Shown piece after piece: positions 32,452-48,850 of a stretch of DNA of 64,000 bases. The notes under the pieces are model-generated. The model was not told the origin of the DNA, did no database searches, and saw nothing but the letters and a program-made list of their open reading frames with translations. The position numbers and the translations under genes were made by a program. The first letter of the stretch is position 1. The number at the start of each line of letters is the position of its first letter. This DNA is from an uncultured Sphingomonadales bacterium (lineage in GTDB: Bacteria; Pseudomonadota; Alphaproteobacteria; Sphingomonadales; Sphingomonadaceae), in NCBI GenBank assembly GCA_903821605.1, contig CAIJLZ010000004.1, positions 62,001 to 126,000 of the forward strand, written 5' to 3'.

Positions 32452-34614
32452 TCAGCTCATGCGGACAAAGGGGAGCCGCGTCGGACGCGCTTTGCCGAGT
32501 TGGGCGAGCGCGTTGGCGACGGCAGGGGCGAGTGGCGGCACAGGCGGCTCGCCGATCCCGGTCGGGGCTACATCCGATTTGATGATCACCAGCTCAACTG
32601 CCGGCATTTCCTCGATCCGCAGTGATCGATAGCCATCGAAATTGCTGATCGTCGGTGCGCCCTTTTCGAGCGGCACCTCACCATAAAGCGCATGGCCAAG
32701 GGCGAAGCCGATGCCGCCTTCGACCTGCGCGCGGATCACGTCCGGATTAACCGCGACGCCGCAGTCAACCGCGCACCAGACTTTATGGACCTTGGGCTCG
32801 CCATTGGTCCCCAGCGAAACTTCGGCGATTTCGGCGACATAGCTACCGAAGCTTTCCGCCACCGCGACGCCGCGCGCCCGGCCCTTGGCCGGTTCGCTGC
32901 CGGACCAGTTGGCGAGTTCGGCTACCGCCTTCAGCACATTCGCAAGACGCGGGTGTTTGCCCATCAGTTCGAGACGGCCCGCGACCGGGTCTTTGCCGGT
33001 TTCGATCAGCAGCCGGTCGATAAAGGTTTCGCGCGAATAGGCGGCATGGGTGTGGCCAACCGAGCGCCACCAGAGCGTCGATACCGGGCTAGACGGGAAG
33101 TGGGCCTCGCAACGAAAAGCGGGTAAATCATAAGGCAGGTTATTCGCACCCTCGACCGCGATCATATCCACGCCGTTGACCACAACATAGGGTTCCAGCG
33201 CCGTGCCCCGCATGAAGGATTGGCCGACCAATGTGTTGGTCCAGCCGGCGATTTGGCCATCGCGCACCACGCCGCGCATGCGATGGAGAAAGAGTGGGCG
33301 GTAATAGCCGCCGCGAATATCGTCTTCGCGGGTCCATACCAATTTGATGGGCGTGTTCGGGCCGATGGCCTTGGCCGCCTCCGCCAATTCCAGCGCGAAA
33401 TGCGAATTGCCTTGCGCCCGGCGGCCAAAGCTACCGCCCGCGATCAATGTCTCGATTTCGACATTGGCGGGGGCCAGCCCCAATGTCATGGCCAGTGCGC
33501 CCTGATCGAAGGTCTGCGCCTGACAGCCATAGCGCGCAAGGGCGCGCGTGCCATCCCATTGCAGATAGCCGTCAAGCGGCTCCATCGGCGCATGGGCGAG
33601 ATAGGGGAAGACATATTCCGCCTCGATCACCTTACCGCCTGCGGCAAAGGCGGCTGCCGCATCGCCCGATGCACCGGCGACGACACCCGGCGTGGCGGCA
33701 AGCGCGCGATAGTCGGCGATCATCTGTTCGGTGCCACGCGTCTCGGCGCCGCTTTCATCCCATGTGATTTTGAGCGCCTTGCGTCCCTTGATCGCGGCCC
33801 ACATGCCTTTGGCATAAACCGCGACGCCGCTCGGGATCGGCTTGACGGCGACCACGCCATTGACCTTGAGCGCCGCGCTGGCGTCGAACGACGCGAGCTT
33901 CGCCCCGAAGCGGTCGGGATGGGCCACCACGACGGTCAGCATGCCGGGCGCGTTGATGTCGAGGGTGAACTTCGCCTTGCCGGTGCTCTTGGCCAGCGCA
34001 TCGACGCGCGGCGTGCGATGATCCTTGCCGATCAACTGGAAATTGGCCGGGTCCTTCAACGTCACCTGTTGTGGCACGGCGAGCTTGGATGCAGCTTCCG
34101 CGAACTGGCCGAACCGGCCTTCCCGCTGGCTCGCCGCATGGCGCAGCACACCTTGCGAGACGGTGATGTCCTCGGGCTTCACCTTCCATGCCAAGGCGGC
34201 GGCCTGCACCAGCATCGCACGTGCCGTCGCACCAGCACGGCGCATCAAATCATAGGAGGTCGCAATGGCATTCGAACCGCCGGTCATCTGAATGCCCGGG
34301 ATGCCCGCATAAAGGGTTGCATCGACCGGGGCATGTTCGGTCCGGATCTTGCTCCAATCGGCGTCGAGTTCTTCTGCGACGAGCGTCGACAGGCCGGTCA
34401 GCGGCCCTTGGCCCATTTCCAGATGTTTGACGATGACCGTCACGATGTCATCACTGCCGATGCGGACATAGGCATTGACCGCGAGCGGTTTGCCAGTGGC
34501 GGCGCTTTGAGCCAGCAGCTTGCCGCCACCCAGTGGCAGGGTGAGGGCGATCACGAGGCCGGCGGCGCCCTTGAGCGCGGCACGGCGGGACAGATTTGCC
34601 TGTTTGATGGTCAT
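32452..34614 (-). CDS. iorB: Molybdopterin-binding subunit of a xanthine-dehydrogenase-family oxidoreductase (IorB-like)
   Basis: 720-residue periplasmic molybdenum hydroxylase large subunit with a twin-arginine signal (S9-R10-R11-AALKGAAG). Contains the Moco-binding GSFGRRAQGNSHFALEL segment and the C-terminal GIGEPPVPPLAPAVANAL stretch. The single large subunit with a TAT leader, next to a small 2Fe-2S subunit, is the isoquinoline 1-oxidoreductase / aldehyde oxidase layout. Begins 3 bp after the iorA stop. Substrate cannot be read; the nearby methylamine genes do not need it. Confidence 0.88.
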   Translation of the reverse strand: MTIKQANLSRRAALKGAAGLVIALTLPLGGGKLLAQSAATGKPLAVNAYVRIGSDDIVTVIVKHLEMGQGPLTGLSTLVAEELDADWSKIRTEHAPVDATLYAGIPGIQMTGGSNAIATSYDLMRRAGATARAMLVQAAALAWKVKPEDITVSQGVLRHAASQREGRFGQFAEAASKLAVPQQVTLKDPANFQLIGKDHRTPRVDALAKSTGKAKFTLDINAPGMLTVVVAHPDRFGAKLASFDASAALKVNGVVAVKPIPSGVAVYAKGMWAAIKGRKALKITWDESGAETRGTEQMIADYRALAATPGVVAGASGDAAAAFAAGGKVIEAEYVFPYLAHAPMEPLDGYLQWDGTRALARYGCQAQTFDQGALAMTLGLAPANVEIETLIAGGSFGRRAQGNSHFALELAEAAKAIGPNTPIKLVWTREDDIRGGYYRPLFLHRMRGVVRDGQIAGWTNTLVGQSFMRGTALEPYVVVNGVDMIAVEGANNLPYDLPAFRCEAHFPSSPVSTLWWRSVGHTHAAYSRETFIDRLLIETGKDPVAGRLELMGKHPRLANVLKAVAELANWSGSEPAKGRARGVAVAESFGSYVAEIAEVSLGTNGEPKVHKVWCAVDCGVAVNPDVIRAQVEGGIGFALGHALYGEVPLEKGAPTISNFDGYRSLRIEEMPAVELVIIKSDVAPTGIGEPPVPPLAPAVANALAQLGKARPTRLPFVRMS

Positions 34615-34617
34615 GGT

Positions 34618-35082
34618 TCAGGCCTCCAGTTTCGCGGCGGCCGATTTGATCGCGGCGCGAATGCGGACATAGGTAGCGCAGCGACACAGATTGCCGCTCA
34701 TGGCGGCGTCGATGTCGTCATCGCTCGGTTTGGGCGTATCGCGCAGCAGGGCGACGGCGCTCATCACCTGTCCCGACTGGCAATAGCCACATTGCGGCAC
34801 ATCATGCGCGACCCATGCGGCTTGCACGGCTTCCGCGACACGGCCATCGACGGCCTCAATGGTGGTAACCTTTTGGCCCGGCGTGAGCGATGCGACGGGG
34901 GTCGAGCAGGACCGCGTCGGTTGGCCATCGAGATGGACCGTGCAGGCCCCGCACATGGCAATGCCACAACCATATTTGGTCCCGGTCAGTTGCAATTCGT
35001 CACGCAGCACCCACAACAGCGGGGTGTCGTCGTCCACATCGACCTGACGATCGGCGCCGTTCACGTTGAGCGTGTATTTCAT
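34618..35082 (-). CDS. iorA: 2Fe-2S subunit of molybdenum hydroxylase (IorA-like)
   Basis: 154 residues carrying two [2Fe-2S] clusters: the plant-type set C39, C44, C47, C59 and the helical-domain set C98, C101, C133, C135. No signal peptide, which fits co-export with the TAT-tagged partner. First gene of the iorAB pair. The 129 bp upstream, to the GlxA-type regulator, have no other gene. Confidence 0.92.
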
Positions 35083-35211: not shown

Positions 35212-36159
35212 TCAAGGTTCGCTGCGTCGCTGGCTCGGGGCATGCCCAAAATGGGCACGATAGGCGCGCGAGAAATGGCTGCTGCTCTGGAAGCCGCACG
35301 CAAGTGCAATGTCCGTCACGGTCATGCCGGTGCTGCGCAACAATTGCGCGGCCTGATCGAGCCGGATCGCTCGCTGAGTGTCCGCCACCGTGCGGCCAAG
35401 ATGCGCCTTGAACAGCCGCTCTAACTGGCGAACGGACACCCCGGCCCGCGCGGCCAGGCCGTCGCGGCCGAGCGGTTCGGCGATGCGGGCTTCCATTTCC
35501 GCCAATACTCGCAACACCCTGTCGTTGCGCACGGCATAGCGTTCGCGCAGGCTTTGGCGCTGGGATTCTCCGGCTTCGCGCGGGGCGGTGCGGATGAACC
35601 ATTCGCCGACCTTGCTGGCGAGCGCATGGCCATGGTCGCGCTCAATCAACTCAATCGCGAGGTCTAGCCCCGCCGTCCCCCCGGCGCAGGTGATGCGGCG
35701 ACGATCAATGACATAGAGCACCGGCTCCAGGCCGACCGCCGGAAACGCCTGTTCGAATGCGGCGGCATGTTCCCAGTGGACCGTCGCGCGATGGCCTTCG
35801 AGCAGCCCGGCGCGTGCCAGCAAATAGGGACCACCCGAAATCCCGGCCAGCCTTACGCCCTGCCGGGCCAATTGCCGCAGCCAGCCAAAGGTCGCTCGAT
35901 CGTCGAAGCTCGCCGGATCACCTGCGGCGAAGACGACCAGCGTGTCACAATCGAGTGGGTCGCCGACGCGGTGATCGGCGAGGATCGTCGCCCCGTTGGA
36001 GGCCCGCACCGGCGCGCCATCGATCGAGACATGATCCCAGGCATAAAGCGCTCGGCCCGCCAGCACATTGGCGGCGCGAAACGGTTCGATCAGCGAGGCA
36101 TAGGACATCAGCGCAAAGCCATTGGTGAGCAGCAAGCCGAAGCGGCGCGTCGCGATCAT
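35212..36159 (-). CDS. GlxA-type transcriptional regulator (DJ-1/PfpI plus AraC domains)
   Basis: An N-terminal DJ-1/PfpI-like domain (RFGLLLTNGFALMSYASLIE) and a C-terminal AraC HTH (GRTVADTQRAIRLDQAAQLL, DIALACGFQSSSHFSRAYRA). Such regulators control betaine, carnitine and sarcosine-type catabolism (GbdR class). The ATG at 36159 is preferred (315 residues) because the family starts just before the RRFG stretch and because two 16-bp direct repeats at 36158-36194 lie upstream. A start at 36195 would put the repeats inside the gene. Divergent from the dehydrogenase operon. Confidence 0.88.
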   Translation of the reverse strand: MIATRRFGLLLTNGFALMSYASLIEPFRAANVLAGRALYAWDHVSIDGAPVRASNGATILADHRVGDPLDCDTLVVFAAGDPASFDDRATFGWLRQLARQGVRLAGISGGPYLLARAGLLEGHRATVHWEHAAAFEQAFPAVGLEPVLYVIDRRRITCAGGTAGLDLAIELIERDHGHALASKVGEWFIRTAPREAGESQRQSLRERYAVRNDRVLRVLAEMEARIAEPLGRDGLAARAGVSVRQLERLFKAHLGRTVADTQRAIRLDQAAQLLRSTGMTVTDIALACGFQSSSHFSRAYRAHFGHAPSQRRSEP

Positions 36160-36194
36160 GTCGTTTTTAGTCATAACAATGTCGTTATTAGACA
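36158..36194. promoter_or_regulatory. Direct repeat, predicted GlxA-type/AraC operator
   Basis: ATGTCGTTTTTAGTCA (36158-36173) and ATGTCGTTATTAGACA (36179-36194) match at 14 of 16 positions, start-to-start 21 bp, two helical turns, as in AraC-family operators. Lies between the regulator and mgdA. Confidence 0.68.
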
Positions 36195-36257
36195 AGCGGC
36201 GCGCGTCGCGCCACCCTAGATTGACCGTGACGCCAGTGGAGAAACGGACCCCGCCTG

Positions 36258-37511
36258 ATGCGCTTCTCGATTTTCAATCTTGCTGCCCATGCGCTGACCG
36301 GCCATCGCCGCTGGACGCCCTCATGGCGCGATGCATCGCCCAAGGCTGGATATGATGTGGTCATCATCGGCGGTGGCGGCCATGGGTTGGCGACCGCTTT
36401 TTATCTCGCCAAGGTGCATGGCATCACCAATGTCGCGATTGTTGAAAAGGGCTGGATCGGCGGCGGCAATGCCGGGCGCAACACCACCATCATCCGTTCC
36501 AATTACGGCCTGCCGGGCAATGAGCCTTTTTACGAATGGTCGATGAAGCTGTGGGAAGGGTTGGAGCAGGCGCTGAATTACAACGCGATGGTCAGCCAGC
36601 GCGGCGTGCTCAATCTGTGCCATTCGGATGCCCAGCGCGATGCCTATGCCCGGCGCGGCAATGCGATGCGGCTGCATGGTGTTGATGCTGAGCTGCTTGA
36701 TCGCAACCAAGTGCGGGCGATGGCGCCGTTCATGAATTTCGATAATGCACGCTTTCCGATTCAGGGCGGGCTGTTGCAGCCGCGCGGTGGCACGGCGCGT
36801 CATGATGCCGTGAATTGGGGCTATGCCCGCGCCGCGTCGGCGCTCGGCGTCGATATCATCCAGAATTGCGAGGTGACGGGCCTCCTCACCGATAATCAAG
36901 GCGCGATGACCGGGGTCGAGACGAACCGTGGTCCGATCCGGGCGGGTAAGGTGGGCATGGCAGTTGCGGGCAATAGCTCGCGCCTTGCCGCCATGGCGGG
37001 CTTGCGCCTGCCAATTGAGAGCCATGTGTTGCAGGCGTTCGTCTCGGAAGGGCTGAAGCCGGTCATCCCCGGCGTCATTACCTTTGGCGCGGGCCATTTT
37101 TACATCAGCCAATCGGATAAGGGTGGGCTGGTCTTTGGCGGCGATATCGATGGGTATAATAGCTATGCCCAACGCGGGAATTTGCCGGTGGTGCAGGATG
37201 TCTGCGAAGGCGGCATGGCGTTGATGCCGATGATCGGCCGGGCGCGGCTGTTGCGCAGTTGGGGCGGGATCGTGGACATGTCGATGGACGGGTCGCCGAT
37301 CATTGATCACGCGCCGGTGCCGGGCCTCTATCTCAATGCGGGCTGGTGCTATGGCGGGTTCAAGGCGACGCCCGCATCGGGCTGGTGCTTTGCCCATCTG
37401 CTCGCGACCGATACGGCGCACGAAACCGCCACCGCGTTCCGCCTTGATCGTTTTGCGACGGGCGATCTGATCGACGAAAAGGGCCAGGGCGCCCACCCGA
37501 ATCTGCACTGA
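36258..37511 (+). CDS. mgdA: N-methylglutamate dehydrogenase subunit A (sarcosine oxidase beta-like)
   Basis: FAD-binding subunit of the heterotetrameric N-methyl amine oxidoreductase, 417 residues. Starts MRFSIFNLAAHALTGHR, then VVIIGGGGHGLATAFYLAK (dinucleotide motif), GNAGRNTTIIRSNY and the C-terminal LNAGWCYGGFKATPASGWCF. Sarcosine oxidase beta and MgdA are paralogous and not separable by motif; the presence of gmaS and mgsABC nearby favours N-methylglutamate as substrate. First gene of a run mgdABCD-purU. Confidence 0.9.
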   Translation: MRFSIFNLAAHALTGHRRWTPSWRDASPKAGYDVVIIGGGGHGLATAFYLAKVHGITNVAIVEKGWIGGGNAGRNTTIIRSNYGLPGNEPFYEWSMKLWEGLEQALNYNAMVSQRGVLNLCHSDAQRDAYARRGNAMRLHGVDAELLDRNQVRAMAPFMNFDNARFPIQGGLLQPRGGTARHDAVNWGYARAASALGVDIIQNCEVTGLLTDNQGAMTGVETNRGPIRAGKVGMAVAGNSSRLAAMAGLRLPIESHVLQAFVSEGLKPVIPGVITFGAGHFYISQSDKGGLVFGGDIDGYNSYAQRGNLPVVQDVCEGGMALMPMIGRARLLRSWGGIVDMSMDGSPIIDHAPVPGLYLNAGWCYGGFKATPASGWCFAHLLATDTAHETATAFRLDRFATGDLIDEKGQGAHPNLH

Positions 37512-37522
37512 GGAGAAGCGGC

Positions 37523-37762
37523 ATGCGTATCCCCTGCCCCCATTGCGGCACGCGCGAGAGCCAGGAATTCGTCTATCGCGGCGATGCGGCCCCCGTGCGG
37601 CCAGCGGATGATGGCGCGATGTTCGACTATGTCTATCTGCGCGATAATGTCGCCGGGGTGATGCGCGAACATTGGTATCATGCCCAAGGGTGCCGCCAAT
37701 GGATTGTCGTCACCCGCGACACGCGCAGCCATGCCATTGATCATGCGGAATTCGCCCGATGA
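37523..37762 (+). CDS. mgdB: N-methylglutamate dehydrogenase subunit B (sarcosine oxidase delta-like)
   Basis: 79 residues with the zinc-binding N-terminus MRIPCPHCGTRESQEF and the WYHAQGCRQWIVVTRDT segment typical of delta subunits. GAGGAGAAG lies before the ATG. Its stop overlaps the subunit C start by 4 bp. Confidence 0.93.
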   Translation: MRIPCPHCGTRESQEFVYRGDAAPVRPADDGAMFDYVYLRDNVAGVMREHWYHAQGCRQWIVVTRDTRSHAIDHAEFAR

Positions 37763-40692
37763 GCCGCTTGCCCACGGGTGGACTGGTCGATCGCAACCAG
37801 CCCTTGCGCTTCAGCTTCGATGGCAAAAGCTATCAGGGTTTTCAGGGAGACACGCTGGCGTCGGCGTTGTTGGCCAATGATGTGACATTGGTCGGGCGCA
37901 GCTTCAAATATCACCGCCCGCGCGGCATTTTGACGGCGGGCAGCGAAGAGCCGAACGCGCTCGTCACCCTGCGTTCGGGCGCGCGGGCGGAGCCGAACAC
38001 GCGGGCCACCACGATTGAACTTTATGACGGGCTAACGGCCAGCAGCCAGAATCGCTGGCCCAGCCTTGGCTTCGATCTGATGGCGGTGAACGGCTTGTTC
38101 TCGCCGCTGTTCGTGGCGGGTTTTTACTACAAGACCTTTATGTGGCCGGCGGCCTTCTGGGAGAAGCTGTACGAGCCGATCATTCGGCGCGCGGCGGGCT
38201 TGGGGGCCTTGTCGATGTTGCCCGATCCGGACAGCTATGATGCCGATCACGGTTTTTGCGATCTGCTCGTCGTCGGTGCCGGTCCCGCTGGCCTTGCGGC
38301 CGCGCTGACAGCGGCGCGGGCAGGCAAGCGCGTGTTCCTCGTCGACGAGGATAGCCGCATGGGCGGTCGCCTGCTGGCCGAACTGCACGAGATTGACGGC
38401 GATGACGGACGGCGCTGGGTTGACCGCACCATTGCCGAACTCGCCGCCTGCCCGCGCGTGACGCTCCTGCCGCGCACGGTGTTGTTCGGGGCCTATGATG
38501 GCGGGGTTTATGGTGCGGTCGAACGGGTGAGTGACCATCTCCCCACCCCCCTGCCCGGCCAGCCGCGCCAGCGCTTGTGGAAGATCGTGGCGACTCGGGC
38601 CATCCTTGCCACCGGCGCGATTGAGCGGCCCTTGGTGTTTGCGGGCAATGATGTGCCGGGCGTCATGACGTCATCGGCGGTGCAGGCCTATGTCCGCCGC
38701 TGGAGCGTCTTGCCGGGCAAGCAAGTGGTGTTCTTCACGACCTGTGACAGTGGCTGGAAGGCCGTGCATGACCTGCTGCGCGCGGGCGTCATTCCCGCCG
38801 CGATTATCGAGGCGCGCGCCCATGTCGCCCCTGACGTCAAGGCGTTGGCGGGTGCCGTGCCGAGCTTCCTTGGCGCGCAGATCATCGGGACCCGCGGTGG
38901 CAAGCGGCTCAAGGGCGTGGACCTTCGCGATGCGCAGGGCCGGACATGGCGGCTTGATGCCGATGTGCTGGCCATGGCGGGCGGTTGGAATCCGGCAGTG
39001 GGGTTGGGCTGCAATCTGGGTGCGCGGCCGCGCTGGTCGGATGAATTGAATGCGTTTCTGCTCGATCACCCGCCAGCCGGCATGGCGATGGCGGGGGCGG
39101 CGGCCGGGCAGTTCGGCCTGGGCGCCGCGCTGGCGAGCGGGATCGCGGCGGCGGCGGAGTTCGGTACCATGGCGGCACCGCGCACCTCGGATGACCCGGC
39201 GGATGGCCGCCCACTTTGGCACGTGCCGCATCGGCGCGGCAAGGCGTTCGTCGATTATCAGCATGACGTCACCGACAGCGATGTCGCCCTCGCCGCGCGC
39301 GAGGGCTTCACCTCGGTTGAACATATGAAGCGCTATACCACGCTGGGCATGGCGACCGATCAGGGCAAGATGGGGCAGGTCAATGGCAATGCCCTGTTGG
39401 CGCAGGCGACCGGCAAGACCATGGCCGAGGCTGGCACCATCCTTTCCCGTCCGCCTTATCTCCCGGTCGCGATCGGGACGCTGGCGGGCCATCATCGCGA
39501 CGAGCATTTCCGCCCTGTCCGCCAAACTGCCGGTCATGGCTGGGCAGCAGAACAGGGCGCGGTGTTTACCGATGCTGGCCAGTGGAAACGCGCCCAATGG
39601 TTCCCCAAGGCGGGCGAGCGCGACTGGCTCGAGTCCGTCTGCCGCGAGGTGAACGCGGTGCGCACCGGTGTTGGCATTTGCGATGTCTCGACGCTGGGCA
39701 AGATCGATGTCCATGGCCCGGATGCGGGGGCATTGCTCGACCGGCTCTATATCAACACCTTCTCCACCTTGCCGGTCGGCAAGGCACGCTATGGCGTGAT
39801 GCTGCGCGAAGACGGGTTCGTGATGGATGATGGCACCACCAGCCGGTTGGCCGACGATCATTTCTTCGTCACCACCACCACGGTCAATGCGGCCAAGGTG
39901 ATGCAGCATATCGACTATGCGCGGCAAGTGTTGTGGCCCGAACTGGATGTGCAGGCGACCTCGGTGACCGAACAATGGGCAACCTATGCGATTGCCGGGC
40001 CGCAATCGCGGGCACTGCTCGCGGCGCTGCTGCCGGAACTCGACCTGTCGAACGAGGCGCTGCCCTATATGGGGGCGCTGTCGTTCCGCTGGCTCGGCGT
40101 ATCGGCGCGCTTGTTCCGGCTCTCCTTCTCGGGCGAGCTGGCCTATGAACTGAGCGTCCCGGCCAGCCATGGCGATCGGCTGATCCGCGCCTTGTTCGAG
40201 CTTGGTCGGGCCTTTGATGCGGTGCCCTATGGCACCGAGGCGCTGGGCGTGATGCGGATCGAAAAGGGCCATGCGGCGGGCAATGAACTGAATGGCCAGA
40301 CGACCGCTGCCGATCTCGGCATGGGTCGGATGATGTCGACCAAGAAGGATTTCATTGGCCGTGTCATGGCGCAACGCCCCGCGCTCACCGATGCAGCCCG
40401 GCCGGTGTTGGTCGGGCTGAAGCCGGTCGATCCTGCTGCCCGGCTGCGCGGTGGGGCGCATCTCCTCCCCAAGGGTGCTGACGCCATCGCGGCCAATGAT
40501 CAGGGCCATGTCACCTCGGTCGCCTATTCGCCGACGCTTGGCCATTGGATCGGGCTGGCGCTGTTGGCCAAGGGGGCCAGCCGTCATGGCGAACGGATCA
40601 TTGTCCATGATCCGGTGCGCGGTGCCGATGTGGAAGTGGAGGTCTGCCATCCCGTCTTTGTCGATCTGGAAGGAGTGCGCGTCCGTGGCTGA
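37759..40692 (+). CDS. mgdC: N-methylglutamate dehydrogenase subunit C (sarcosine oxidase alpha-like)
   Basis: 977-residue large subunit: an N-terminal ferredoxin-like domain (FQGDTLASALLANDVTLVGR, KYHRPRGI), a pyridine-nucleotide-disulfide-oxidoreductase part (VVGAGPAGLAAALTAARAGK), and a C-terminal GcvT-like folate-binding half (from about 600; GKIDVHGPDAGALLDRLYIN, FRLSFSGELAYELSVPA). In the family the folate half transfers the methyl-derived C1 unit to tetrahydrofolate, which PurU, encoded next, can convert further. Length fits alpha subunits (about 960-1000). Confidence 0.93.
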   Translation: MSRLPTGGLVDRNQPLRFSFDGKSYQGFQGDTLASALLANDVTLVGRSFKYHRPRGILTAGSEEPNALVTLRSGARAEPNTRATTIELYDGLTASSQNRWPSLGFDLMAVNGLFSPLFVAGFYYKTFMWPAAFWEKLYEPIIRRAAGLGALSMLPDPDSYDADHGFCDLLVVGAGPAGLAAALTAARAGKRVFLVDEDSRMGGRLLAELHEIDGDDGRRWVDRTIAELAACPRVTLLPRTVLFGAYDGGVYGAVERVSDHLPTPLPGQPRQRLWKIVATRAILATGAIERPLVFAGNDVPGVMTSSAVQAYVRRWSVLPGKQVVFFTTCDSGWKAVHDLLRAGVIPAAIIEARAHVAPDVKALAGAVPSFLGAQIIGTRGGKRLKGVDLRDAQGRTWRLDADVLAMAGGWNPAVGLGCNLGARPRWSDELNAFLLDHPPAGMAMAGAAAGQFGLGAALASGIAAAAEFGTMAAPRTSDDPADGRPLWHVPHRRGKAFVDYQHDVTDSDVALAAREGFTSVEHMKRYTTLGMATDQGKMGQVNGNALLAQATGKTMAEAGTILSRPPYLPVAIGTLAGHHRDEHFRPVRQTAGHGWAAEQGAVFTDAGQWKRAQWFPKAGERDWLESVCREVNAVRTGVGICDVSTLGKIDVHGPDAGALLDRLYINTFSTLPVGKARYGVMLREDGFVMDDGTTSRLADDHFFVTTTTVNAAKVMQHIDYARQVLWPELDVQATSVTEQWATYAIAGPQSRALLAALLPELDLSNEALPYMGALSFRWLGVSARLFRLSFSGELAYELSVPASHGDRLIRALFELGRAFDAVPYGTEALGVMRIEKGHAAGNELNGQTTAADLGMGRMMSTKKDFIGRVMAQRPALTDAARPVLVGLKPVDPAARLRGGAHLLPKGADAIAANDQGHVTSVAYSPTLGHWIGLALLAKGASRHGERIIVHDPVRGADVEVEVCHPVFVDLEGVRVRG

Positions 40693-41152
40693 TCTTGTCC
40701 AGATGATCGAACGCGCCGGCCTGTCGCTGGCGACCGTGATGGCGCGCAAGGGGGCCGATTACGGCGCGATCATTGCCGCGCTCGGCGATGGTGAACTTCA
40801 TGCCACCGGCCCCGGCACCTGGCTGGCCGTTTCGGACGCGTCGCTTGACGAGCTGCCGGATCGGCTGCGCGGACAGGCGTCTGTCTCGGATCAGTCGGGT
40901 GGTTACATCGTCTACCGCTTCGCCGGGCCGGGGGCGCGCCGCCTGTTGCAACGCGGCGCGTTCATCGATCTCGATCCGGAGGCCTTTGGTCCCGGCGCGG
41001 TTGCGGTCACTGCCATCGCCCATATGGGCGTGATCCTGTGGCAAGTTGATGCTGCCCCGACCTATGATGTCGCGATTTTCCGCAGCCATGCCGAGAGCTT
41101 CCGCCACTGGGTCGAGGGCATGATTCCCGCCCTTGCCCCAATTTCTGCCTGA
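40685..41152 (+). CDS. mgdD: N-methylglutamate dehydrogenase subunit D (sarcosine oxidase gamma-like)
   Basis: 155 residues starting at a GTG at 40685 that overlaps subunit C by 8 bp: (M)[20 protein letters not shown], then [20 protein letters not shown] and [15 protein letters not shown], which are gamma-subunit features. An upstream in-frame ATG would extend into mgdC and was rejected. Confidence 0.9.
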
Positions 41153-41174
41153 TTTTGACCCCGACGAGGCCCCG

Positions 41175-42035
41175 ATGACCGCTGTCCCCTATCTGCTTAC
41201 GCTCATCTGCCCAAACCAGCCCGGCATCGTCGCCCGGGTCAGCGCCCATTTGTTCGCCCATCTCGGCAACATCATCGAAGCGCACCAGTTTGACGACACC
41301 GAGACCGGGCGCTTCTTTGCCCGCATCGTGTTCACCCTGCCTGAAGGCGGCGATATCGATACGGTGCGGGCGGGTTTTCGCCCGATTGCGGATCATTATG
41401 CGATGGAATGGACGCTGCGCCCGCGAGACGAACCGCGCAAGGTGCTGCTGCTGGCCTCCAAATTCGATCATTGCCTCGTTGATCTTTTGTATCGCTGGCG
41501 CATTGGCGAACTGAGCATGGATGTCGTCGGCATCATTTCCAACCATCCGCGCGAAACTTATGCCCGCACCGAATTCGGCGACATTCCGTTTCACCATTTG
41601 CCGATCACCAAGGACAGCAAGCCGCAGCAGGAAGCGCAGATCAAGGCCATTGTCGCGGAGAGCGGCGCAGAACTGGTGGTGCTGGCGCGCTATATGCAGA
41701 TCCTGTCGGATGATCTGGCGGCCTTTCTTTCCGGGCGCTGCATCAACATTCATCACAGCTTCCTCCCCGGGTTCAAGGGGGCCAAGCCCTATCATCAAGC
41801 CCATGCCCGTGGCGTCAAGATGATCGGCGCATCGGCGCATTATGTGACGGCTGATCTCGATGAAGGGCCGATCATCGTGCAGGATGTCGAACCGATCAGC
41901 CATGCCGATAGCCCGGAAGATCTGGTGAGCAAGGGTCGCGATATTGAGCGCCGGGTGCTGGCCCGGGCGGTCACCTATCATCTCGCGGGCCGGTCGTTGC
42001 TGAACGGGTCCAAGACCGTGGTGTTCCGCGAATAG
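41175..42035 (+). CDS. purU: Formyltetrahydrofolate deformylase
   Basis: Hydrolyses 10-formyl-THF to THF and formate. The 286-residue protein has an N-terminal ACT domain ([20 protein letters not shown]) and a formyltransferase-fold half with [20 protein letters not shown] and the catalytic Asn-His pair. Its position directly behind mgdD supports a role in recycling folate loaded by the dehydrogenase. Confidence 0.94.
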
Positions 42036-42070
42036 GCGGCGGGCAGGTGCCGGTAGGGATGCGATGTTTC

Positions 42071-42098
42071 TTGACAGGCACCTCTCTCACGGCACAAT
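42071..42098 (+). promoter_or_regulatory. Candidate sigma-70 promoter of the cupin regulator
   Basis: TTGACA (42071-42076), 16-bp spacer, CACAAT (42093-42098, 4 of 6). It lies 57 bp before the GTG at 42156 and within the purU-regulator gap. Confidence 0.4.
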
Positions 42099-42155
42099 CG
42101 CGATGCCCAGCCGCAGCCAAGCCTGCCGCAGCAGATGGGGGAGGAGAAGCACCGC

Positions 42156-42785
42156 GTGCCCGACGATCAAGGCGAATATTATACCGGCTCCGCCGCACCG
42201 AAGGTTGCTGAGCGCAGCCTTGAGCGCGCGCTTGGTATCCATATCCGGCAGGTGAGAAAGCGGCTTGACCTGTCAGTTGCCGAATTGGCGGCGGCGTCTG
42301 GTATTTCCAACGGCATGTTGTCCAAGATCGAAAATGGCGCGATTTCGGCGTCGCTCTCCACGCTCCAGTCGATTTCCAACGCCTTGCAGGTGCCGTTGTC
42401 GTCGCTGTTCGCCTCGTTTGAGGAACAACAGGATTGTTCCCATGTGGCGGCAGGGCAAGGGCTGGTGATTGAACGGCGGGGCAGCAAGGTCGGCCATGTC
42501 TATCAACTGCTTGGCCATTCATTGCGCGGCGATGTGGTGGTGGAGCCGTATCTGATCACGCTCAATGCAGGGGCTAAATCTTATAATGGATTCCGCCATG
42601 CGGGCGTTGAGTTTATCTATATGCTGGAAGGCGAGATCGTCTATCGCCACGGGGCGGAGACCTATCACCTTAAACCCGGCGATTCCTTCCTGTTCGACTC
42701 CGGCGCGCTCCATGGGCCGGAGGAACTGCCGGCGCTGCCGGCGCGCTATCTCTCGATCATCGTCTACCCCCGCGCCGGGGACTGA
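42156..42785 (+). CDS. XRE-family regulator with C-terminal cupin domain
   Basis: 209 residues: an HTH (about 26-80: IRQVRKRLDLSVAELAAASG, SNGMLSKIENGAIS) and a cupin barrel (YNGFRHAGVEFIYMLEGEIV, KPGDSFLFDSGALHGPEEL). Such SinR/PuuR-like proteins sense a small molecule through the cupin. The GTG at 42156 was chosen because GGGGAGGAG sits 9 nt ahead; an ATG at 42135 has no SD. Located between purU and the convergent gmaS, so it likely regulates the methylamine genes. Confidence 0.85.
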   Translation: MPDDQGEYYTGSAAPKVAERSLERALGIHIRQVRKRLDLSVAELAAASGISNGMLSKIENGAISASLSTLQSISNALQVPLSSLFASFEEQQDCSHVAAGQGLVIERRGSKVGHVYQLLGHSLRGDVVVEPYLITLNAGAKSYNGFRHAGVEFIYMLEGEIVYRHGAETYHLKPGDSFLFDSGALHGPEELPALPARYLSIIVYPRAGD

Positions 42786-42817
42786 CCCGGCGGGGAGGGC
42801 AGGGGCCGCGCGCCGCT

Positions 42818-44116
42818 TTAGCAGTCGAGCGTGTGATCACGCTCCCAAGTCGAGAGGTGGCGGCAATATTCGTTCCAGTCGGCAAGCTTGAGCTTGCCAT
42901 AAGCGGTCATGAATTCATGACCAAAGGCCTGTCGCAAGATCGTTGATTTCTCAAAAGCGCGCAGTGCGTCGAGCAAGTTGAGCGGCAGCCGCTTGGCATT
43001 GCGGACCTTGTGGCCCTCTTCGTACATATTGATATCGAGCCGCTTGCCCGGATCGCGGCTCTCGCGGATGCCGTCGAGTCCGGCTGCGAGCACGCCCGCC
43101 TGCAACAAATAGGGGTTGGCGGCACCATCGGCGAGCCGGAATTCGAACCGCCCGTCATCCGGGATACGGATCATATGGGTGCGGTTGTTGCCAGTGAAGG
43201 TGAGGGTGTTGGGCGCCCACGTCGCGCCTGATGTGGTGCGCGGCGCGTTGATCCGCTTGTAGCTGTTGACCGTCGGATTGGTGATCGCGGTCAGCGCCTC
43301 GCCATTGTGCAGCAGCCCGGCGATGAACTGATAACCAAGTTCCGACAGGCCGAGTTCGTCCTTGTCGTCGGCGAATAAATTGGTGTCACCCCGCCACATC
43401 GAGACATGAGTATGGCAGCCGTTGCCGGTGAGGTTGGAAAACGGCTTGGGCATGAACGTCACCCGCAGCCCGTGCTTCTCGGCAATCGACTTGGCCATGA
43501 ACTTGAAAAAGGCATGGCGGTCGGCGGTAATGAGGGCGTCGGCATAGTCCCAGTTCATTTCGAACTGGCCGTTCGCGTCCTCATGGTCGTTTTGATAGGG
43601 ATTCCAGCCCAGCACGATCATCGCATCGCAGATTTCGGTGATGACGTCATAGCGTCGCATCAGCGCTTGCTGGTCGTAACAGGGCTTGGCCTGCTTGTCG
43701 GCGCTGTCTGAAATCGCTTCGCCATCGGGGCTCAGCAAGAAATATTCGCACTCCACGCCCGCTTTCATCTGATAGCCCATCGCGGCCGCCGCCGCGATTT
43801 GGGCCTTGAGCACATTGCGCGGGCCGTGCGGGACGGGTTTGCCGTTCATGATCGGATCGGCGGCGAGCCAGCCCACTTCCGGCTTCCATGGCAGCTGGAT
43901 CAGGCTGTCGGGATCGGGCAGGGCGAACATGTCGGGATCGGCCGGGGTCATGTCTAGCCAGGTCGCAAAACCGGCAAAGCCCGCGCCGTTCTTCATCATG
44001 CCGTCGATGGCTTCTGCCGGGACCAGCTTGGAACGCTGCACCCCGAATAGGTCGGTGAAGCTGATGAGGAAATATTTGATGCCGCGCTCGGCGGCGATTT
44101 TGGAAAGTTTCGTCAC
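42818..44116 (-). CDS. gmaS: Gamma-glutamylmethylamide synthetase (type III glutamine synthetase-like)
   Basis: ATP-dependent ligation of glutamate with methylamine. The 432-residue GS-fold protein has KAGVECEYFLLSPDG, NGCHTHVSMW (metal and ammonia site), and RINAPRTTSG. It resembles GlnT and GmaS, which are alike; context decides: the gene is downstream of mgsABC in a leftward operon, the classical arrangement for the N-methylglutamate pathway. The start is a GTG. It ends 32 bp from the regulator's stop in convergent orientation. Confidence 0.85.
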   Translation of the reverse strand: MTKLSKIAAERGIKYFLISFTDLFGVQRSKLVPAEAIDGMMKNGAGFAGFATWLDMTPADPDMFALPDPDSLIQLPWKPEVGWLAADPIMNGKPVPHGPRNVLKAQIAAAAAMGYQMKAGVECEYFLLSPDGEAISDSADKQAKPCYDQQALMRRYDVITEICDAMIVLGWNPYQNDHEDANGQFEMNWDYADALITADRHAFFKFMAKSIAEKHGLRVTFMPKPFSNLTGNGCHTHVSMWRGDTNLFADDKDELGLSELGYQFIAGLLHNGEALTAITNPTVNSYKRINAPRTTSGATWAPNTLTFTGNNRTHMIRIPDDGRFEFRLADGAANPYLLQAGVLAAGLDGIRESRDPGKRLDINMYEEGHKVRNAKRLPLNLLDALRAFEKSTILRQAFGHEFMTAYGKLKLADWNEYCRHLSTWERDHTLDC

Positions 44117-44208
44117 TGCTTACCCCTTCTCATCCCTGATCCGGCCCGTGGCCGATCCCTTGCATCCCTGCCGGACCGGCCCCGTGCCGATCGGCGAGGG
44201 GGTCGATC

Positions 44209-45543
44209 TCACATGCCGCCGGCCATGCCCGGAATCCAGCCAGTGCCCGCCAGGGGCACCCGCGCCATCGCCGCCGCCTCGATGGTGAGGGCGACAAGGT
44301 CCTCCGGTTCGAGATTGTGGAGGTGGCTCTTGCCACAGGCGCGCGCGATGGTTTGCGCTTCGAGCGTCAGCACCGCGAGATAATTGGCGAGCCGCCGCCC
44401 GGCCGCGACCGGATCAAGCCTTGCGGCCAGCAGCGGATCTTGGGTGGTGATGCCCGCCGGGTCCTTGCCCTCGTGCCAGTCGTCATAAGCCCCGGCGGTG
44501 CTGCCGAGCTTGCGATATTCTGCTTCGAGCGCCGGATCATTATCGCCGAGCGCGACCAGTGCGGCGGTGCCGATTGCCACCGCGTCCGCGCCCAGCGCCA
44601 GCGCCTTGGCCACATCCGCGCCGTTGCGAATGCCGCCCGACACGATCAACTGCACCTTGCGATGCATGCCAAGGTCTTGCAACGCCTGCACCGCTGGGCG
44701 GATCGCGGCGAGCGTCGGGATGCCGACATGTTCGATGAACACTTCTTGCGTCGCCGCCGTGCCGCCCTGCATGCCGTCGAGCACGACAACATCCGCGCCT
44801 GCCTTCACTGCCAGCGCGACGTCATAATAGGGACGGGTCGCCCCGACCTTGACGTAGATCGGCTTTTCCCAATCGGTGATTTCGCGCAGTTCCTCGATCT
44901 TGATTTCCAGATCATCCGGTCCGGTCCAATCGGGGTGGCGACAGGCCGAGCGCTGGTCGATGCCCTTGGGCAGGGTGCGCATCTCGGCGACGCGGTCGGA
45001 AATCTTCTGGCCCAGCAGCATGCCACCGCCGCCGGGCTTGGCGCCTTGGCCAACCACGACCTCAATCGCATCCGCCTTGCGCAGATCGTCCGGGTTCATG
45101 CCATAGCGCGAGGGGAGATATTGATAGACCAGCGTTTGCGACTGGCCGCGTTCTTCCGGCGTCATGCCGCCATCGCCGGTGGTGGTGGAGGTGCCCGCAA
45201 TGGTCGCGCCCCGACCCAAGGCTTCCTTGGCCTGACCCGATAGCGCGCCAAAGCTCATCCCCGCGATGGTCACCGGGGTCTTGAGATGGATCGGCTTTTT
45301 CGCAAAGCGGGTGCCGAGCCAGACATCGGTGCCGCATTTCTCGCGATAACCCTCCAGCGGATAACGCGACATCGACGCGCCGAGGAACAGCAGGTCGTCG
45401 AAATGCGGCAGCTTGCGCTTGGTGCCACCGCCGCGAATGTCATAGATGCCGGTGGCCGCCGCGCGACGGATCTCGGCGAGGGTCGCCGGATCGAAGGTCG
45501 CCGAAAAGCGCGGCAGGGTCTGCGGGATGTTGTTGATGTCCAT
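44209..45543 (-). CDS. mgsC: N-methylglutamate synthase subunit C (FMN-binding glutamate synthase-like)
   Basis: 444 residues with the glutamate-synthase central FMN domain: IAGMSFGALSGQAKEALGRG, GQGAKPGGGGMLLGQKI, and DGMQGGTAATQEVFIEHVG. In glutamate synthase this subunit joins ammonia to an acceptor; here the pathway predicts methylamine transfer giving N-methylglutamate. Start overlaps the mgsB stop by 1 bp (TAATG). Confidence 0.88.
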   Translation of the reverse strand: MDINNIPQTLPRFSATFDPATLAEIRRAAATGIYDIRGGGTKRKLPHFDDLLFLGASMSRYPLEGYREKCGTDVWLGTRFAKKPIHLKTPVTIAGMSFGALSGQAKEALGRGATIAGTSTTTGDGGMTPEERGQSQTLVYQYLPSRYGMNPDDLRKADAIEVVVGQGAKPGGGGMLLGQKISDRVAEMRTLPKGIDQRSACRHPDWTGPDDLEIKIEELREITDWEKPIYVKVGATRPYYDVALAVKAGADVVVLDGMQGGTAATQEVFIEHVGIPTLAAIRPAVQALQDLGMHRKVQLIVSGGIRNGADVAKALALGADAVAIGTAALVALGDNDPALEAEYRKLGSTAGAYDDWHEGKDPAGITTQDPLLAARLDPVAAGRRLANYLAVLTLEAQTIARACGKSHLHNLEPEDLVALTIEAAAMARVPLAGTGWIPGMAGGM

Positions 45544-46226
45544 TAATAAGCCCCCGCATTATCGACGTGGAAGTTGTAGAGGGTGCGGCCCGAGCCATAG
45601 CGGCTGAACTCTTCCGGCCGGGCGTCAACCCCGGCAGCGGCGAGCAATTCGGCCAGCTCCGCGAGATGTTCGGCGCGCATCTCCTTGGCGACGCAATCCG
45701 CGCCGAGGCTCTTCACGCTGCCGCGCACATAGATATGGGTTTCGTAGATCGAATCCCCCAGCGCATCGCCCGCATCGCCGAGCACGACCAAGCGGCCGGA
45801 CTGGGCCATGAAGGCGCTCATCGGCCCGATCGAGCCTTTGACGACAATATCGACGCCCTTCATCGAAATGCCGCAGCGCGCCGACGCATTGCCATCGATA
45901 ACGAGCAGCCCGCCATGGGCGGTGGCACCGGCGGCTTGGCTGGCATCGCCCTTCACATGGACGGTGCCCGACATCATGTTTTCGGCGACGCCGACACCGG
46001 CATTGCCCTCGATGATGATCGTCGCCTGCTGGTTCATGCCCGCGCAATAATAGCCGGCATGGCCCTTGATGGTGACGGTGACCGGCGCATTGACCCCGGC
46101 GGCAAGCGCATGCTGGCCTTCCGGGTGAAGCACGGTCCAGTCAGCGGTGGGCGCGTCCTTGGGCAGGGCATGCAGCGCGCCGTTCAGGTCGCGACGGGTG
46201 GCGGTGGATAGATCGAGTGTCGTCAT
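45543..46226 (-). CDS. mgsB: N-methylglutamate synthase subunit B (GXGXG domain)
   Basis: 227 residues consisting of the GXGXG beta-helix of the glutamate synthase C-terminus, with repeated turns (GHAGYYCAGMNQQATIII, GNAGVGVAENMMSGTVHVKG, GNASARCGISMKGVDIVVKG). Start at 46226 forms an ATGA overlap with mgsA; an upstream GTG/ATG at 46241 is possible but less likely. Confidence 0.88.
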   Translation of the reverse strand: MTTLDLSTATRRDLNGALHALPKDAPTADWTVLHPEGQHALAAGVNAPVTVTIKGHAGYYCAGMNQQATIIIEGNAGVGVAENMMSGTVHVKGDASQAAGATAHGGLLVIDGNASARCGISMKGVDIVVKGSIGPMSAFMAQSGRLVVLGDAGDALGDSIYETHIYVRGSVKSLGADCVAKEMRAEHLAELAELLAAAGVDARPEEFSRYGSGRTLYNFHVDNAGAY

Positions 46227-47113
46227 GACTGGCGCTCCCACGCATAGACATGGGCGGGTTCGGGTTCGAACACCCGGGCATTGGCGATCCCCGGCAGGCC
46301 GGCGAGCGCACGATATTCGGACCCGAAGGCGACATATTGGTCAGTCTCGGCCATCACGGCGGGCTTGCAACTGATCGGGTCGCGCAGCACGGCAAAGCCG
46401 TTTTCGGTGCCGACCACAAAGGTGAAGAAGCCGTCGAGGTCATCAAGGCTTGCTTCCAGCGCCTCGGCAAGGCTCGCGCCGTCGCGCATCTTCCAGCTAA
46501 GATAGCCCGCGGCGACCTCGCTGTCATTGTCGGTGGCGATGTAGATGCCTTCGCGGGTTAGTGTGCGCTTCAGGCTTTTGTGGTTGGAGAGCGAGCCATT
46601 GTGGACGAGGCACTGATCCGGCCCGGTCGAAAAAGGGTGCGCGCCATCGGTGGTGACGGCGCTTTCGGTCGCCATGCGGGTATGGCCGATGCCATGGGTG
46701 CCGGCCATTTGCTGAAGCCCGAAGCGGGTGGCCACTTCGGCGGGCAGGCCGACTTCCTTGTAGAGTTCAATCCGCTGGCCGGAGCCGGTGATCACGAGAT
46801 CGGGGCGTTCGGCTTCGAGCCAGACCCGCGCCGCGTCTTCGGATGCTGCCGGGACCGACAGCACCAAATGGGTATCATGCGCGGTCGCCTCGACCGCCAC
46901 ATGGATCGCGGCGGCCAGCGCCTTGGCGAGGCCATCGAGATTGTCGCCGCGCAAAGTCAGCTTCACATGACCCGCATTGCCCGCGCCATAGACGGCGAAA
47001 CCCGCGCTATCCGGGCCGCGCCCGGTCATCACTTCGAGCATCTCGGCGAGCATCTCACCGAGCTGGGGCTCCAGCGCCTTGTCCTTCAAAAACAGGCCCA
47101 CAATTCCACACAT
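46223..47113 (-). CDS. mgsA: N-methylglutamate synthase subunit A (class II glutamine amidotransferase)
   Basis: 296 residues with the N-terminal nucleophile MCGIVGLFLKDK (Cys2, after Met removal), which forces the start at 47113. The Ntn-hydrolase domain contains GHTRMATESAVTTDGAHPF and HNGSLSNH. It supplies the amide-type transfer from gamma-glutamylmethylamide. First gene of mgsABC; upstream intergenic is described separately. Confidence 0.9.
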   Translation of the reverse strand: MCGIVGLFLKDKALEPQLGEMLAEMLEVMTGRGPDSAGFAVYGAGNAGHVKLTLRGDNLDGLAKALAAAIHVAVEATAHDTHLVLSVPAASEDAARVWLEAERPDLVITGSGQRIELYKEVGLPAEVATRFGLQQMAGTHGIGHTRMATESAVTTDGAHPFSTGPDQCLVHNGSLSNHKSLKRTLTREGIYIATDNDSEVAAGYLSWKMRDGASLAEALEASLDDLDGFFTFVVGTENGFAVLRDPISCKPAVMAETDQYVAFGSEYRALAGLPGIANARVFEPEPAHVYAWERQS

Positions 47114-47500
47114 GTTGAACGTTGCTCCGTGCTTGGCTTGTGCGGCCAGTGTTGCGTCAAATGCACGCCCTGTCAACTGCCAAGAACCATTATTTCCCTT
47201 TAAGAAACTATTGAGCCTTATTTCGGGGGACGCGCCGCATCATAAAATGCGGCGATGCAGCATTTTTAGCCGGATGGCAGTTGACTTGGTGCGCGGGGGG
47301 GCTAGTGACCCGCCCTCGGTCTTCACTCATGGGCATTTGTCCGGGGGCCGAACTTCGCCTTTGTCACCAGTGCACGTGGTGCGGACCCTGTCCCGCCCGG
47401 CGACTCGGCTTGACGCTGGCGGGATGGGGTAGCGGCGACGATGCCCCTGTGATGTTGTTTGTTGTCTTTTGCCTTTTGCCTTTTGAAGGAGATCGTCCGC
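47114..47500. other. Divergent intergenic region between mgsA and the Pro/Ala-rich gene
   Basis: No gene seen in 387 bp. On the minus strand a perfect TTGACA lies at 47176-47171, but the -10 region at the expected distance (AACACT) matches only 3 of 6; an activator-dependent mgsA promoter is possible. The T-rich segment at 47455-47485 with repeated CTTTTGCC leads into the SD of the next gene. No hairpin or repeat stands out. Confidence 0.4.
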
Positions 47501-48850
47501 GTGGAGTCCAAGGTGTTTGTCGATCTGTTGGCAGAAGCATCACAGGACCCGGATGAACTGGCAGAATTGGCGGAAGAGTTGGCGGCGCTTGCCAAGGATC
47601 ATGGCTGGGCCGGTTCACTTCGATTGAAGGCGCTGCACATGCGGCGGCAATTGCTGGCACCGAAACCAGTGGCCGCGCCCGTTCAGCCCAAAGCGGCGTC
47701 CCCCGCCCGCACCGCGCCGCCGCGCCGCCGGACGGCCAGCCCGGCAGCGGAGTTCGCCGAAGCGGTGGCTGCATCGACCCGGCGTGAAGTTGCGCCCATT
47801 CCCGCGCCGGTCGCCCCGGACAAGGATGTGCCGATTTCGCCCGCTGTCGAATTGTCGGCCCCGGTTGTGGCCGCGCCGTCTGTCATGCCGGAACAGCCGG
47901 TGGACGTGGTGCCGATTGCCCCAGCCCCAGCCCCAGCCCCAGCCCCGACGCTGGTCCCGGCCTCAGCCCCAGCCCCGACTCTGGTCCCGGCCTCAGCCCC
48001 AGCCCCAACCCCCGTTTCGAATCCGGTCCCGATCACCGCGCAGCCGGATCGCCCCAATCTGCTGGCGCCGTTCAACCTGCCGCTGCCGGGCGTGGGGCCG
48101 ATGCCGCTTGATCAGTTGCGGATGAAGCTGGCTGATTTCGATCGACTGCAACAGGCGTTGCGCTTGGTCGCCGATCATCTGGCGCAAGGGGCGAGCGAGG
48201 CCGAGGCTGGCGGCTTTATTGTCTGGATGGCGCAGCGGTTCCGTTGTGAATATCAAGGGCGGAGCAATTGGCCGCTCAACGCGGCGCGCGAACTGCTGCC
48301 CGATTTGACGGGGGAGCGGTTGAGCCAGCTTTGCGCGCTGGGCCTGCGTTATTGGAACTTGCCTGCATTTGAGGCGGAAGGGGCGGCCAGCCCGGCCGCC
48401 AGCCTGCCCTATTATGCGGGCTTCCCTGATCAGGCGGTGCAGCCTGCCCATTTCGTCTGGCTGCGTGCCGCGCTTGGCCAGTTGCTGGGCATGTGGCTGG
48501 CGGCGGGCGGGCTTGAACCGCTGGATACATTGGTGCTCGCCAGTGGTCAGCTTGGTTGGCTATCCGATGATTGGCGGACGGTCGAATTTCAGTCGGCAGC
48601 GGTGCGGCTGACATCTCGTCTCGGGGCGTTGCGACGGTCGGCGGATGCCGCGGCGATTGCGCCTGCCGATGTCATTCACTGGCTTGACGAGGTGCATAGC
48701 GGATGGCGGGGGTCGTTGCCGATGCGCGATGGTGAGTTGGCGCATGAACTGGTGGACGAGTTGTTGATGATGGGTGCCGTTGATCAACGCGAGCGTCGCC
48801 GGTGGAGCCTTGGCGCGATGCTTTCCGAGCGCGCGGCGCTGGCGGCCTGA
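47501..48850 (+). CDS. Hypothetical protein with Pro/Ala-rich linker
   Basis: 449 residues from a GTG at 47501 (AAGGAG 9 nt upstream). A short acidic helical N-terminus (residues 1-50: FVDLLAEASQDPDELAELAE), then about 140 residues of Pro/Ala/Val-rich low-complexity sequence with a 10-residue tandem repeat, then a folded helical C-terminus (from about 195: LLAPFNLPLPGVGPMPLDQL ... WLDEVHSGWRGSLPMRDGEL). No signal peptide or membrane segment. I do not recognise a family. Confidence 0.75.
   Translation: MESKVFVDLLAEASQDPDELAELAEELAALAKDHGWAGSLRLKALHMRRQLLAPKPVAAPVQPKAASPARTAPPRRRTASPAAEFAEAVAASTRREVAPIPAPVAPDKDVPISPAVELSAPVVAAPSVMPEQPVDVVPIAPAPAPAPAPTLVPASAPAPTLVPASAPAPTPVSNPVPITAQPDRPNLLAPFNLPLPGVGPMPLDQLRMKLADFDRLQQALRLVADHLAQGASEAEAGGFIVWMAQRFRCEYQGRSNWPLNAARELLPDLTGERLSQLCALGLRYWNLPAFEAEGAASPAASLPYYAGFPDQAVQPAHFVWLRAALGQLLGMWLAAGGLEPLDTLVLASGQLGWLSDDWRTVEFQSAAVRLTSRLGALRRSADAAAIAPADVIHWLDEVHSGWRGSLPMRDGELAHELVDELLMMGAVDQRERRRWSLGAMLSERAALAA
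47925..48010 (+). repeat. 30-bp tandem repeat and AP-dipeptide run within the hypothetical gene
   Basis: The unit at 47941-47970 repeats at 47971-48000 with one mismatch; both start AGCCCCGAC and end CCTCAGCCCC. It is preceded by CCCCAG repeats. The repeats encode Ala-Pro-rich decapeptides. Confidence 0.85.

What the first reader, a model, noticed from the sequence alone, without database searches (positions are those of the whole stretch)
36158..47113. Complete N-methylglutamate methylamine pathway in two opposed operons
Seen: gmaS-like GS, mgsA (Ntn amidotransferase with MCGIVG start), mgsB (GXGXG) and mgsC (FMN domain) lie in one leftward run, while a four-subunit sarcosine-oxidase-type complex plus purU lies in a rightward run, ending tail to tail at about 42.8 kb. 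Known: this gene set defines the indirect N-methylglutamate pathway (GmaS, MgsABC, MgdABCD). Inference: the complex here is N-methylglutamate dehydrogenase, not sarcosine oxidase, and the strain uses methylamine as nitrogen and perhaps carbon source. I know this pathway mainly from methylotrophs and roseobacters; its occurrence in a sphingomonad may be underreported.
Basis: partly seen in the sequence, partly recalled or inferred. Interest (0 to 1): 0.75.

Follow-up and report, generated by a model that had tools for sequence, protein, structure and literature searches.

The report
Methylamine-using gene cluster in a sphingomonad
This looks like a complete, intact copy of a known bacterial pathway that turns methylamine into usable nitrogen, found in a group of bacteria where it is uncommon; it is a useful annotation rather than a surprise.

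Summary
mgdABCD-purU and an XRE/cupin regulator lie at 36258-42785 (+), gmaS-mgsCBA at 42818-47113 (-); the runs meet tail to tail, 32 bp apart. GmaS keeps 22 of 22 functional residues of the solved Rhodovulum GmaS. The four-subunit complex is of the N-methylglutamate dehydrogenase type, not sarcosine oxidase: MgdA and MgdC fall in a supported clade with gmaS-linked Methylobacterium and sphingomonad copies; in the MgdA tree the two crystallised sarcosine oxidases lie outside it. The pathway reading is supported. The carbon-source suggestion is not: formate-THF ligase and Fae were not found in the genome, whereas formate dehydrogenase and a glutathione-type formaldehyde dehydrogenase were. Methylamine is most likely a nitrogen source whose methyl group is burnt to CO2. 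GmaS occurs in 10 of 249 sampled family genomes (own included), all 10 with a SoxA-family match; the two sampled congeners lack both, and the cluster lies in a 21.6-kb segment without a match in the corresponding 80 kb of one of them. Caution: 7 of 29 genomes with a Mgd-clade complex lack GmaS. New member of a known kind; low interest. Side result: gmaS-linked dehydrogenases fall in two deep lineages.

The parts
35212..36195 (-). AraC-type regulator with DJ-1/PfpI domain, divergent from mgdA; candidate activator (position like that of TmaR)
   Evidence: Pfam HTH_18, HTH_AraC, DJ-1_PfpI; a similar gene is divergent from mgdA in Methylobacterium (e.g. L044), Sphingobium (L039) and other family genomes (e.g. 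L197, L198, L201)
36258..37511 (+). mgdA, beta-type flavin subunit of N-methylglutamate dehydrogenase
   Evidence: TIGR01373 698 bits; Mgd clade; His182 aligns with the His of TSOX beta that is recalled to carry FMN
37523..37762 (+). mgdB, SoxD-like small subunit
   Evidence: PF04267 99.9 bits; below the TIGR01374 cut-off
37759..40692 (+). mgdC, alpha-type subunit with GcvT-like folate domain
   Evidence: TIGR01372 1363 bits; Mgd clade
40685..41152 (+). mgdD, SoxG-like subunit (GTG start inferred)
   Evidence: TIGR01375 58 bits, below cut-off; no Pfam hit; place conserved
41175..42035 (+). purU, 10-formyl-THF deformylase
   Evidence: TIGR00655 316 bits
42135..42785 (+). XRE/cupin (PuuR-like) regulator, found close to mgs-gmaS in many relatives
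   Evidence: HTH_3, Cupin_2
42818..44116 (-). gmaS, gamma-glutamylmethylamide synthetase
   Evidence: TIGR03105 693 bits; PDB 7cql 1.8e-198; 22 of 22 functional residues
44209..45543 (-). mgsC, FMN/glutamate-synthase domain of N-methylglutamate synthase
   Evidence: PF01645 300 bits; 84-88% identity in the Methylobacterium/Methylorubrum loci
45543..46226 (-). mgsB, GXGXG domain subunit
   Evidence: PF01493
46223..47113 (-). mgsA, Ntn amidotransferase subunit (MCGIVG)
   Evidence: PF13522, PF13537; start checked

Best explanation
A complete, chromosomal N-methylglutamate pathway used mainly to take nitrogen from methylamine. GmaS joins methylamine to glutamate with ATP (inferred from residue identity with a characterised enzyme). 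MgsABC then makes N-methylglutamate from the product and 2-oxoglutarate (inferred from family). MgdABCD oxidises N-methylglutamate back to glutamate and passes the one-carbon unit to tetrahydrofolate as CH2-THF (inferred; clade membership shown). FolD (not searched here), PurU and formate dehydrogenase then burn it to CO2; the FrmA route can take any free formaldehyde. The divergent AraC/DJ-1 protein probably switches on mgd and perhaps gmaS-mgs, and the XRE/cupin protein is a second regulator (both inferred from position only).
For: Intact genes and families. GmaS: 22 of 22 residues of RhGmaS named as binding ATP, glutamate, Mg or methylamine or as catalytic, including Ala48 in place of the ammonia-binding Asp. 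MgdA and MgdC in the Mgd clade with gmaS-linked Methylobacterium copies (support 99 and 100); both crystallised TSOX beta chains outside in the MgdA tree. At 10 positions the Mgd and Sox clades hold different near-fixed residues; the window has the Mgd residue at 9. Of the genomes I placed, GmaS is present in 22 of 29 with a Mgd-clade complex and in 3 of 21 without one, and those 3 have the second gmaS-linked lineage. FDH and FrmA present; FTHFS and Fae not found.
Against: Seven of those 29 genomes have the Mgd-clade complex without GmaS, so clade membership does not by itself prove a methylamine role. No methylamine transporter among the genes assigned between 35.2 and 47.1 kb. No biochemically characterised Mgd was in the trees, and no characterised SoxA alpha chain in the MgdC tree. 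No expression or growth data. FolD not searched.
Confidence: 0.92

Rival explanations
1. The four-subunit complex is an ordinary sarcosine oxidase for glycine-betaine breakdown that happens to lie beside gmaS-mgsABC; purU is found beside sox operons too.
For: NCBIfam names the subunits soxB/soxA families; purU also lies beside sox operons without gmaS in the fetched stretch, e.g. L195, L203, L214; by identity the window's MgdA is closer to the Sox clade (50-59%) than to the second gmaS-linked lineage (42-48%).
Against: Separate supported clade and near-fixed residue differences; the same neighbourhood in methylotrophs such as Methylobacterium. There is no other SoxA-family alpha subunit over the cut-off in the genome, so the pathway would lack its dehydrogenase.
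Confidence: 0.04
2. Mgd serves a further N-methyl compound as well (for example homarine, whose breakdown is reported to use Mgd), and the Mo-hydroxylase genes next door (32452-35082) act on that compound.
For: Seven of 29 Mgd-clade genomes lack GmaS. A passage in PMC13390433 says Mgd participates in homarine catabolism. The Mo-hydroxylase pair follows the AraC gene on the same strand.
Against: No similar Mo-hydroxylase hit beside mgd in the other sphingomonad stretches; the homarine paper itself is not held, so its genes were not compared.
Confidence: 0.1

Closest known systems
N-methylglutamate pathway of Methylobacterium (mgdABCD, mgsABC, gmaS)
   Same: Same eight genes, with an AraC gene divergent from mgdA in several; MgsC 84-88%, GmaS 72-74%, full-length MgdA 74-76% and full-length MgdC 56-58% identical in the Methylobacterium/Methylorubrum loci
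   Different: Here gmaS-mgs faces mgd and purU is in the mgd run; no Fae or FTHFS found in the genome
NMG clusters of other sphingomonads (Sphingomonas formosensis L062, Sphingobium MAG L039, unnamed family genomes)
   Same: Same genes plus XRE regulator in most; MgdA 82-87% in 11 of 13 sphingomonad copies (78% in L202, 73% in L090)
   Different: In L062 and L039 the enzyme genes all run in one direction; the place of purU varies
Heterotetrameric sarcosine oxidase (PDB 2gag, 1vrq)
   Same: Same four-subunit architecture; MgdA E 2.5e-134, MgdC 9.9e-188
   Different: Different clade (beta chain); near-fixed differences such as Cys364-Tyr365 for Gly-Thr
Second gmaS-linked dehydrogenase lineage (L073, L076, L094, L098, L114, L118, L278, L280, L281)
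   Same: SoxBDAG-like, on the same contig as gmaS or mgs within about 20 kb
   Different: Deep separate lineage, MgdA 42-48% to the window; lacks the Cys-Tyr signature in the 6 rows compared

Membership tests
N-methylglutamate pathway | gmaS present, of GmaS and not glutamine synthetase type | tested here: met
   TIGR03105 over cut-off; 22 of 22 residues
N-methylglutamate pathway | mgsABC: amidotransferase, GXGXG and FMN domains as separate genes | tested here: met
   no dedicated NCBIfam model matched
N-methylglutamate pathway | mgdABCD four-subunit complex | tested here: met
   MgdB and MgdD under their NCBIfam cut-offs
N-methylglutamate pathway | dehydrogenase falls with MgdA/MgdC and not with SoxB/SoxA | tested here: met
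   clade defined by gmaS-linked Methylobacterium copies, no characterised Mgd itself included
N-methylglutamate pathway | methylamine-dependent growth or enzyme activity | not testable with these tools
   needs the strain
Heterotetrameric sarcosine oxidase | beta subunit clusters with crystallised TSOX | tested here: not met
Methylotrophy (C1 assimilation) | formate-THF ligase or Fae | tested here: not met
   no match in the own genome; the same searches rang in 4 and 2 of 14 control genomes
Methylotrophy (C1 assimilation) | other serine-cycle enzymes | not tested

The most novel reading that the evidence does not exclude
The sphingomonad Mgd complex is a two-purpose enzyme: besides methylamine it serves breakdown of another N-methyl compound, with the neighbouring AraC and Mo-hydroxylase genes as its upstream part, which would explain Mgd complexes in genomes without GmaS.
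Probability: 0.1. Interest if true: 0.45.

Novelty: new member of a known kind. Interest (0 to 1): 0.22.

Why it matters
It extends a known methylamine nitrogen pathway to a small-genome sphingomonad in which it is accessory. The residue signature that separates Mgd from Sox beta subunits may help to annotate soxBDAG-like operons, which the NCBIfam models used here all name sarcosine oxidase family; the SAR11 paper PMC3160333 states that it was unclear which of two such operons had which function (passage seen).

Tried and rejected
Sarcosine oxidase as the identity of the complex: rejected on the trees and on near-fixed residues. A carbon-source role through formate assimilation: no FTHFS and no Fae found. 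Recent import from Methylobacterium: not supported, the nearest rows for MgdA and MgdC are sphingomonads. A tRNA-borne integration site: tRNA-Lys lies at 29548-29623, but the repeat search of 29300-52000 gave no repeat that involves it. Promoter-like sites were above the shuffles (6 found, mean 2.5, sd 1.6; the best, 10 of 12, at 42071-42098 before the XRE gene), terminator-like sites were not (8 found, mean 9.9, sd 3.3); neither is used as evidence. The right flank (48895-49770) did not find the matching place in the congener: its best match there was 50% identical and the window genome has its own second copy at 51%; ETF-QO worked instead. Whether all gmaS-linked dehydrogenases are one clade is left open: in the MgdA tree the two lineages together form one side of a branch against the 31 Sox rows (support 93, the eight intermediate rows not counted), neither shown nor rejected.

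Dropped rows and limits. Taken were MgdC of more than 850 aa and MgdA of more than 370 aa with hits over 90% coverage (80%) and over 33% identity. L133 and L198 in the MgdC tree are the same gene. In the MgdC tree the Sox rows are not one group (2 changes), no PDB alpha chain was included, and FastTree warned of a long-branch join for the far group. The MgdA trees are quick IQ-TREE runs with SH-aLRT support, no bootstrap. L196 and L197 were labelled 'alone' only because the fetched stretch ends short; their gmaS lies about 13-17 kb away on the same contig. Of 36 family genomes with a SoxA-family match, 14 were not fetched; of 37 others (own excluded), 9 were not fetched; these are unclassified. 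In one search I set the MgdD start and the PurU start one codon off; corrected and checked. A paper search for sphingomonad genera with two of six terms was uninformative.

Full report
What is there. The rightward run holds mgdA (36258-37511), mgdB (37523-37762), mgdC (37759-40692), mgdD (40685-41152), purU (41175-42035) and an XRE/cupin regulator (42135-42785). The leftward run holds mgsA (46223-47113), mgsB (45543-46226), mgsC (44209-45543) and gmaS (42818-44116). All ten frames are free of internal stops, and mgdB/mgdC, mgdC/mgdD, mgsA/mgsB and mgsB/mgsC overlap by one to eight bases; 32 bp separate the two runs. An AraC-type regulator with a DJ-1/PfpI domain (35212-36195, -) is divergent from mgdA. 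Family scores are above cut-off for MgdA, MgdC, GmaS and PurU, and below the NCBIfam cut-off for MgdB and MgdD.

GmaS. The best solved relative is RhGmaS of Rhodovulum (7cql, E 1.8e-198). From passages and section 6 of PMC7948447 I took 22 residues described as binding ATP, glutamate, Mg or methylamine, as catalytic, or as standing where glutamine synthetase has its ammonia-binding Asp (Ala48). All 22 are the same in the window protein (16 of 16, 6 of 6). The paper reports the lowest Km for methylamine among the amines tested (passage).

The dehydrogenase. I compared 86 MgdA/SoxB sequences, including the beta chains of two crystallised sarcosine oxidases. The window falls in a clade of 41 rows (SH-aLRT 99) with gmaS-linked copies from Methylobacterium and sphingomonads; the two crystallised oxidases sit in another group (support 96) with 29 copies that have no gmaS in the fetched stretch. 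Adding three rows did not change this (Mgd 41 rows, one change, support 99; Sox 31 rows, one change, support 93). In the MgdC tree (87 rows, FastTree) the 44 Mgd rows are one side of a branch with support 100; there the Sox rows are not one group, and no characterised SoxA was included. Ten positions of MgdA differ almost completely between the clades; the window carries the Mgd residue at nine, among them Cys364-Tyr365 where Sox has Gly-Thr. Identities of MgdA to the window are 50-59% for the Sox clade and six intermediate rows, 72-86% for copies with gmaS or mgs in the same stretch (second lineage aside), and 65-87% for the other copies without.

How specific is that? Of 249 family genomes, 10 (own included) have GmaS over the cut-off, and all 10 have a SoxA-family match at E <= 1e-150. 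Of 37 other genomes of the phylum sample with such a match, 21 have GmaS. I placed the complexes of 50 genomes, 22 of the 36 in the family sample and 28 of those 37. In the Mgd clade, 22 of 29 genomes have GmaS (10 of 12 in the family sample, 12 of 17 in the other). Outside it, 3 of 21 have GmaS (0 of 10 and 3 of 11), and these three (G256, G401, G433) carry the second gmaS-linked lineage. The seven Mgd-clade genomes without GmaS (G067, G220, G260, G314, G330, G361, G379) show that the complex can occur without it; PMC13390433 mentions a role of Mgd in homarine catabolism (passages; the cited paper is not held).

Fate of carbon. In the window's own genome (2.67 Mb, 19 contigs, listed as 100% complete) a formate dehydrogenase alpha subunit (928 bits, cut-off 666) and a glutathione-type formaldehyde dehydrogenase (610 bits, cut-off 544) are present. 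No formate-THF ligase and no Fae were found. I infer that the methyl carbon is burnt, with PurU making formate, and that nitrogen is what is gained. The genome has no other SoxA-family protein over the cut-off.

Relatives and origin. Sphingomonas formosensis (L062) has mgdABCD-purU-XRE-mgsABC-gmaS in one direction, and a Sphingobium MAG (L039) has a divergent AraC gene and then mgdABCD, XRE, mgsABC, gmaS, purU. The facing layout here thus looks like a local rearrangement; L134 too has gmaS-mgs facing mgd. The two other genomes held for the genus, G035 and G118 (the latter 86% complete), lack GmaS over the cut-off and SoxA-family matches. In the 80 kb of G035 that correspond, the window's 6-29920 matches in inverted order and 51523-63963 in forward order; nothing between matched by blastn, and none of 15 window proteins from 32.4-49.8 kb matched by tblastn, while ETF-QO as a control did. 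The cluster is therefore accessory in the genus. The nearest rows of MgdA and MgdC are other family members.

Regulation. TmaR of Ruegeria pomeroyi, an AraC-type activator encoded beside mgd, is essential for growth on any of the methylated amines (abstract and passages of PMC13390433). The AraC protein here lies beside mgd too; whether it is an orthologue was not tested, as I had no TmaR sequence.

Literature. Searches for the pathway with Sphingomonas, Sphingomonadales, Sphingomonadaceae or Novosphingobium listed at most six papers each. Of these I saw passages of PMC8292978 and PMC7065363 and only the listing of the rest; none that I saw describes the pathway in a sphingomonad. PMC8292978 reports mau genes in Novosphingobium KN65.2 and no growth on methylamine. 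The held library is open-access only, so this is weak evidence of absence. PMC5023228 notes the pathway in non-methylotrophic proteobacteria as a nitrogen route (passage).

Verdict. A well-supported new member of a known kind. Interest is low; the two deep lineages of gmaS-linked dehydrogenase and the Mgd/Sox residue signature are the parts most worth keeping.

Noticed in passing
   Followed up: partly
window 29920-51523: A 21.6-kb segment without a match in the corresponding 80 kb of congener G035, at a place where the left 30 kb is inverted; tRNA-Lys at 29548-29623 lies near its left edge; no integrase among the genes scanned and no end repeat seen.
   Followed up: partly
window 32452-35082: Mo-hydroxylase pair (xanthine dehydrogenase/aldehyde oxidoreductase-like; large subunit with a twin-arginine-like start) on the same strand behind the AraC gene.
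   Followed up: no
L135 (G049): A GmaS match starting at profile position 43, with no mgs gene in the 20 kb around it, in a family genome whose mgd operon is on another contig (L201).
   Followed up: no
G067 (L199), G220 (L202): Family genomes with AraC, mgdABCD and purU of the Mgd clade but no GmaS over the cut-off.
   Followed up: partly
window 47459-48850: 463-aa protein with a Pro/Ala-rich stretch made of 12- and 18-base repeats; YjiT-family match below the cut-off (52 vs 150 bits).
   Followed up: no
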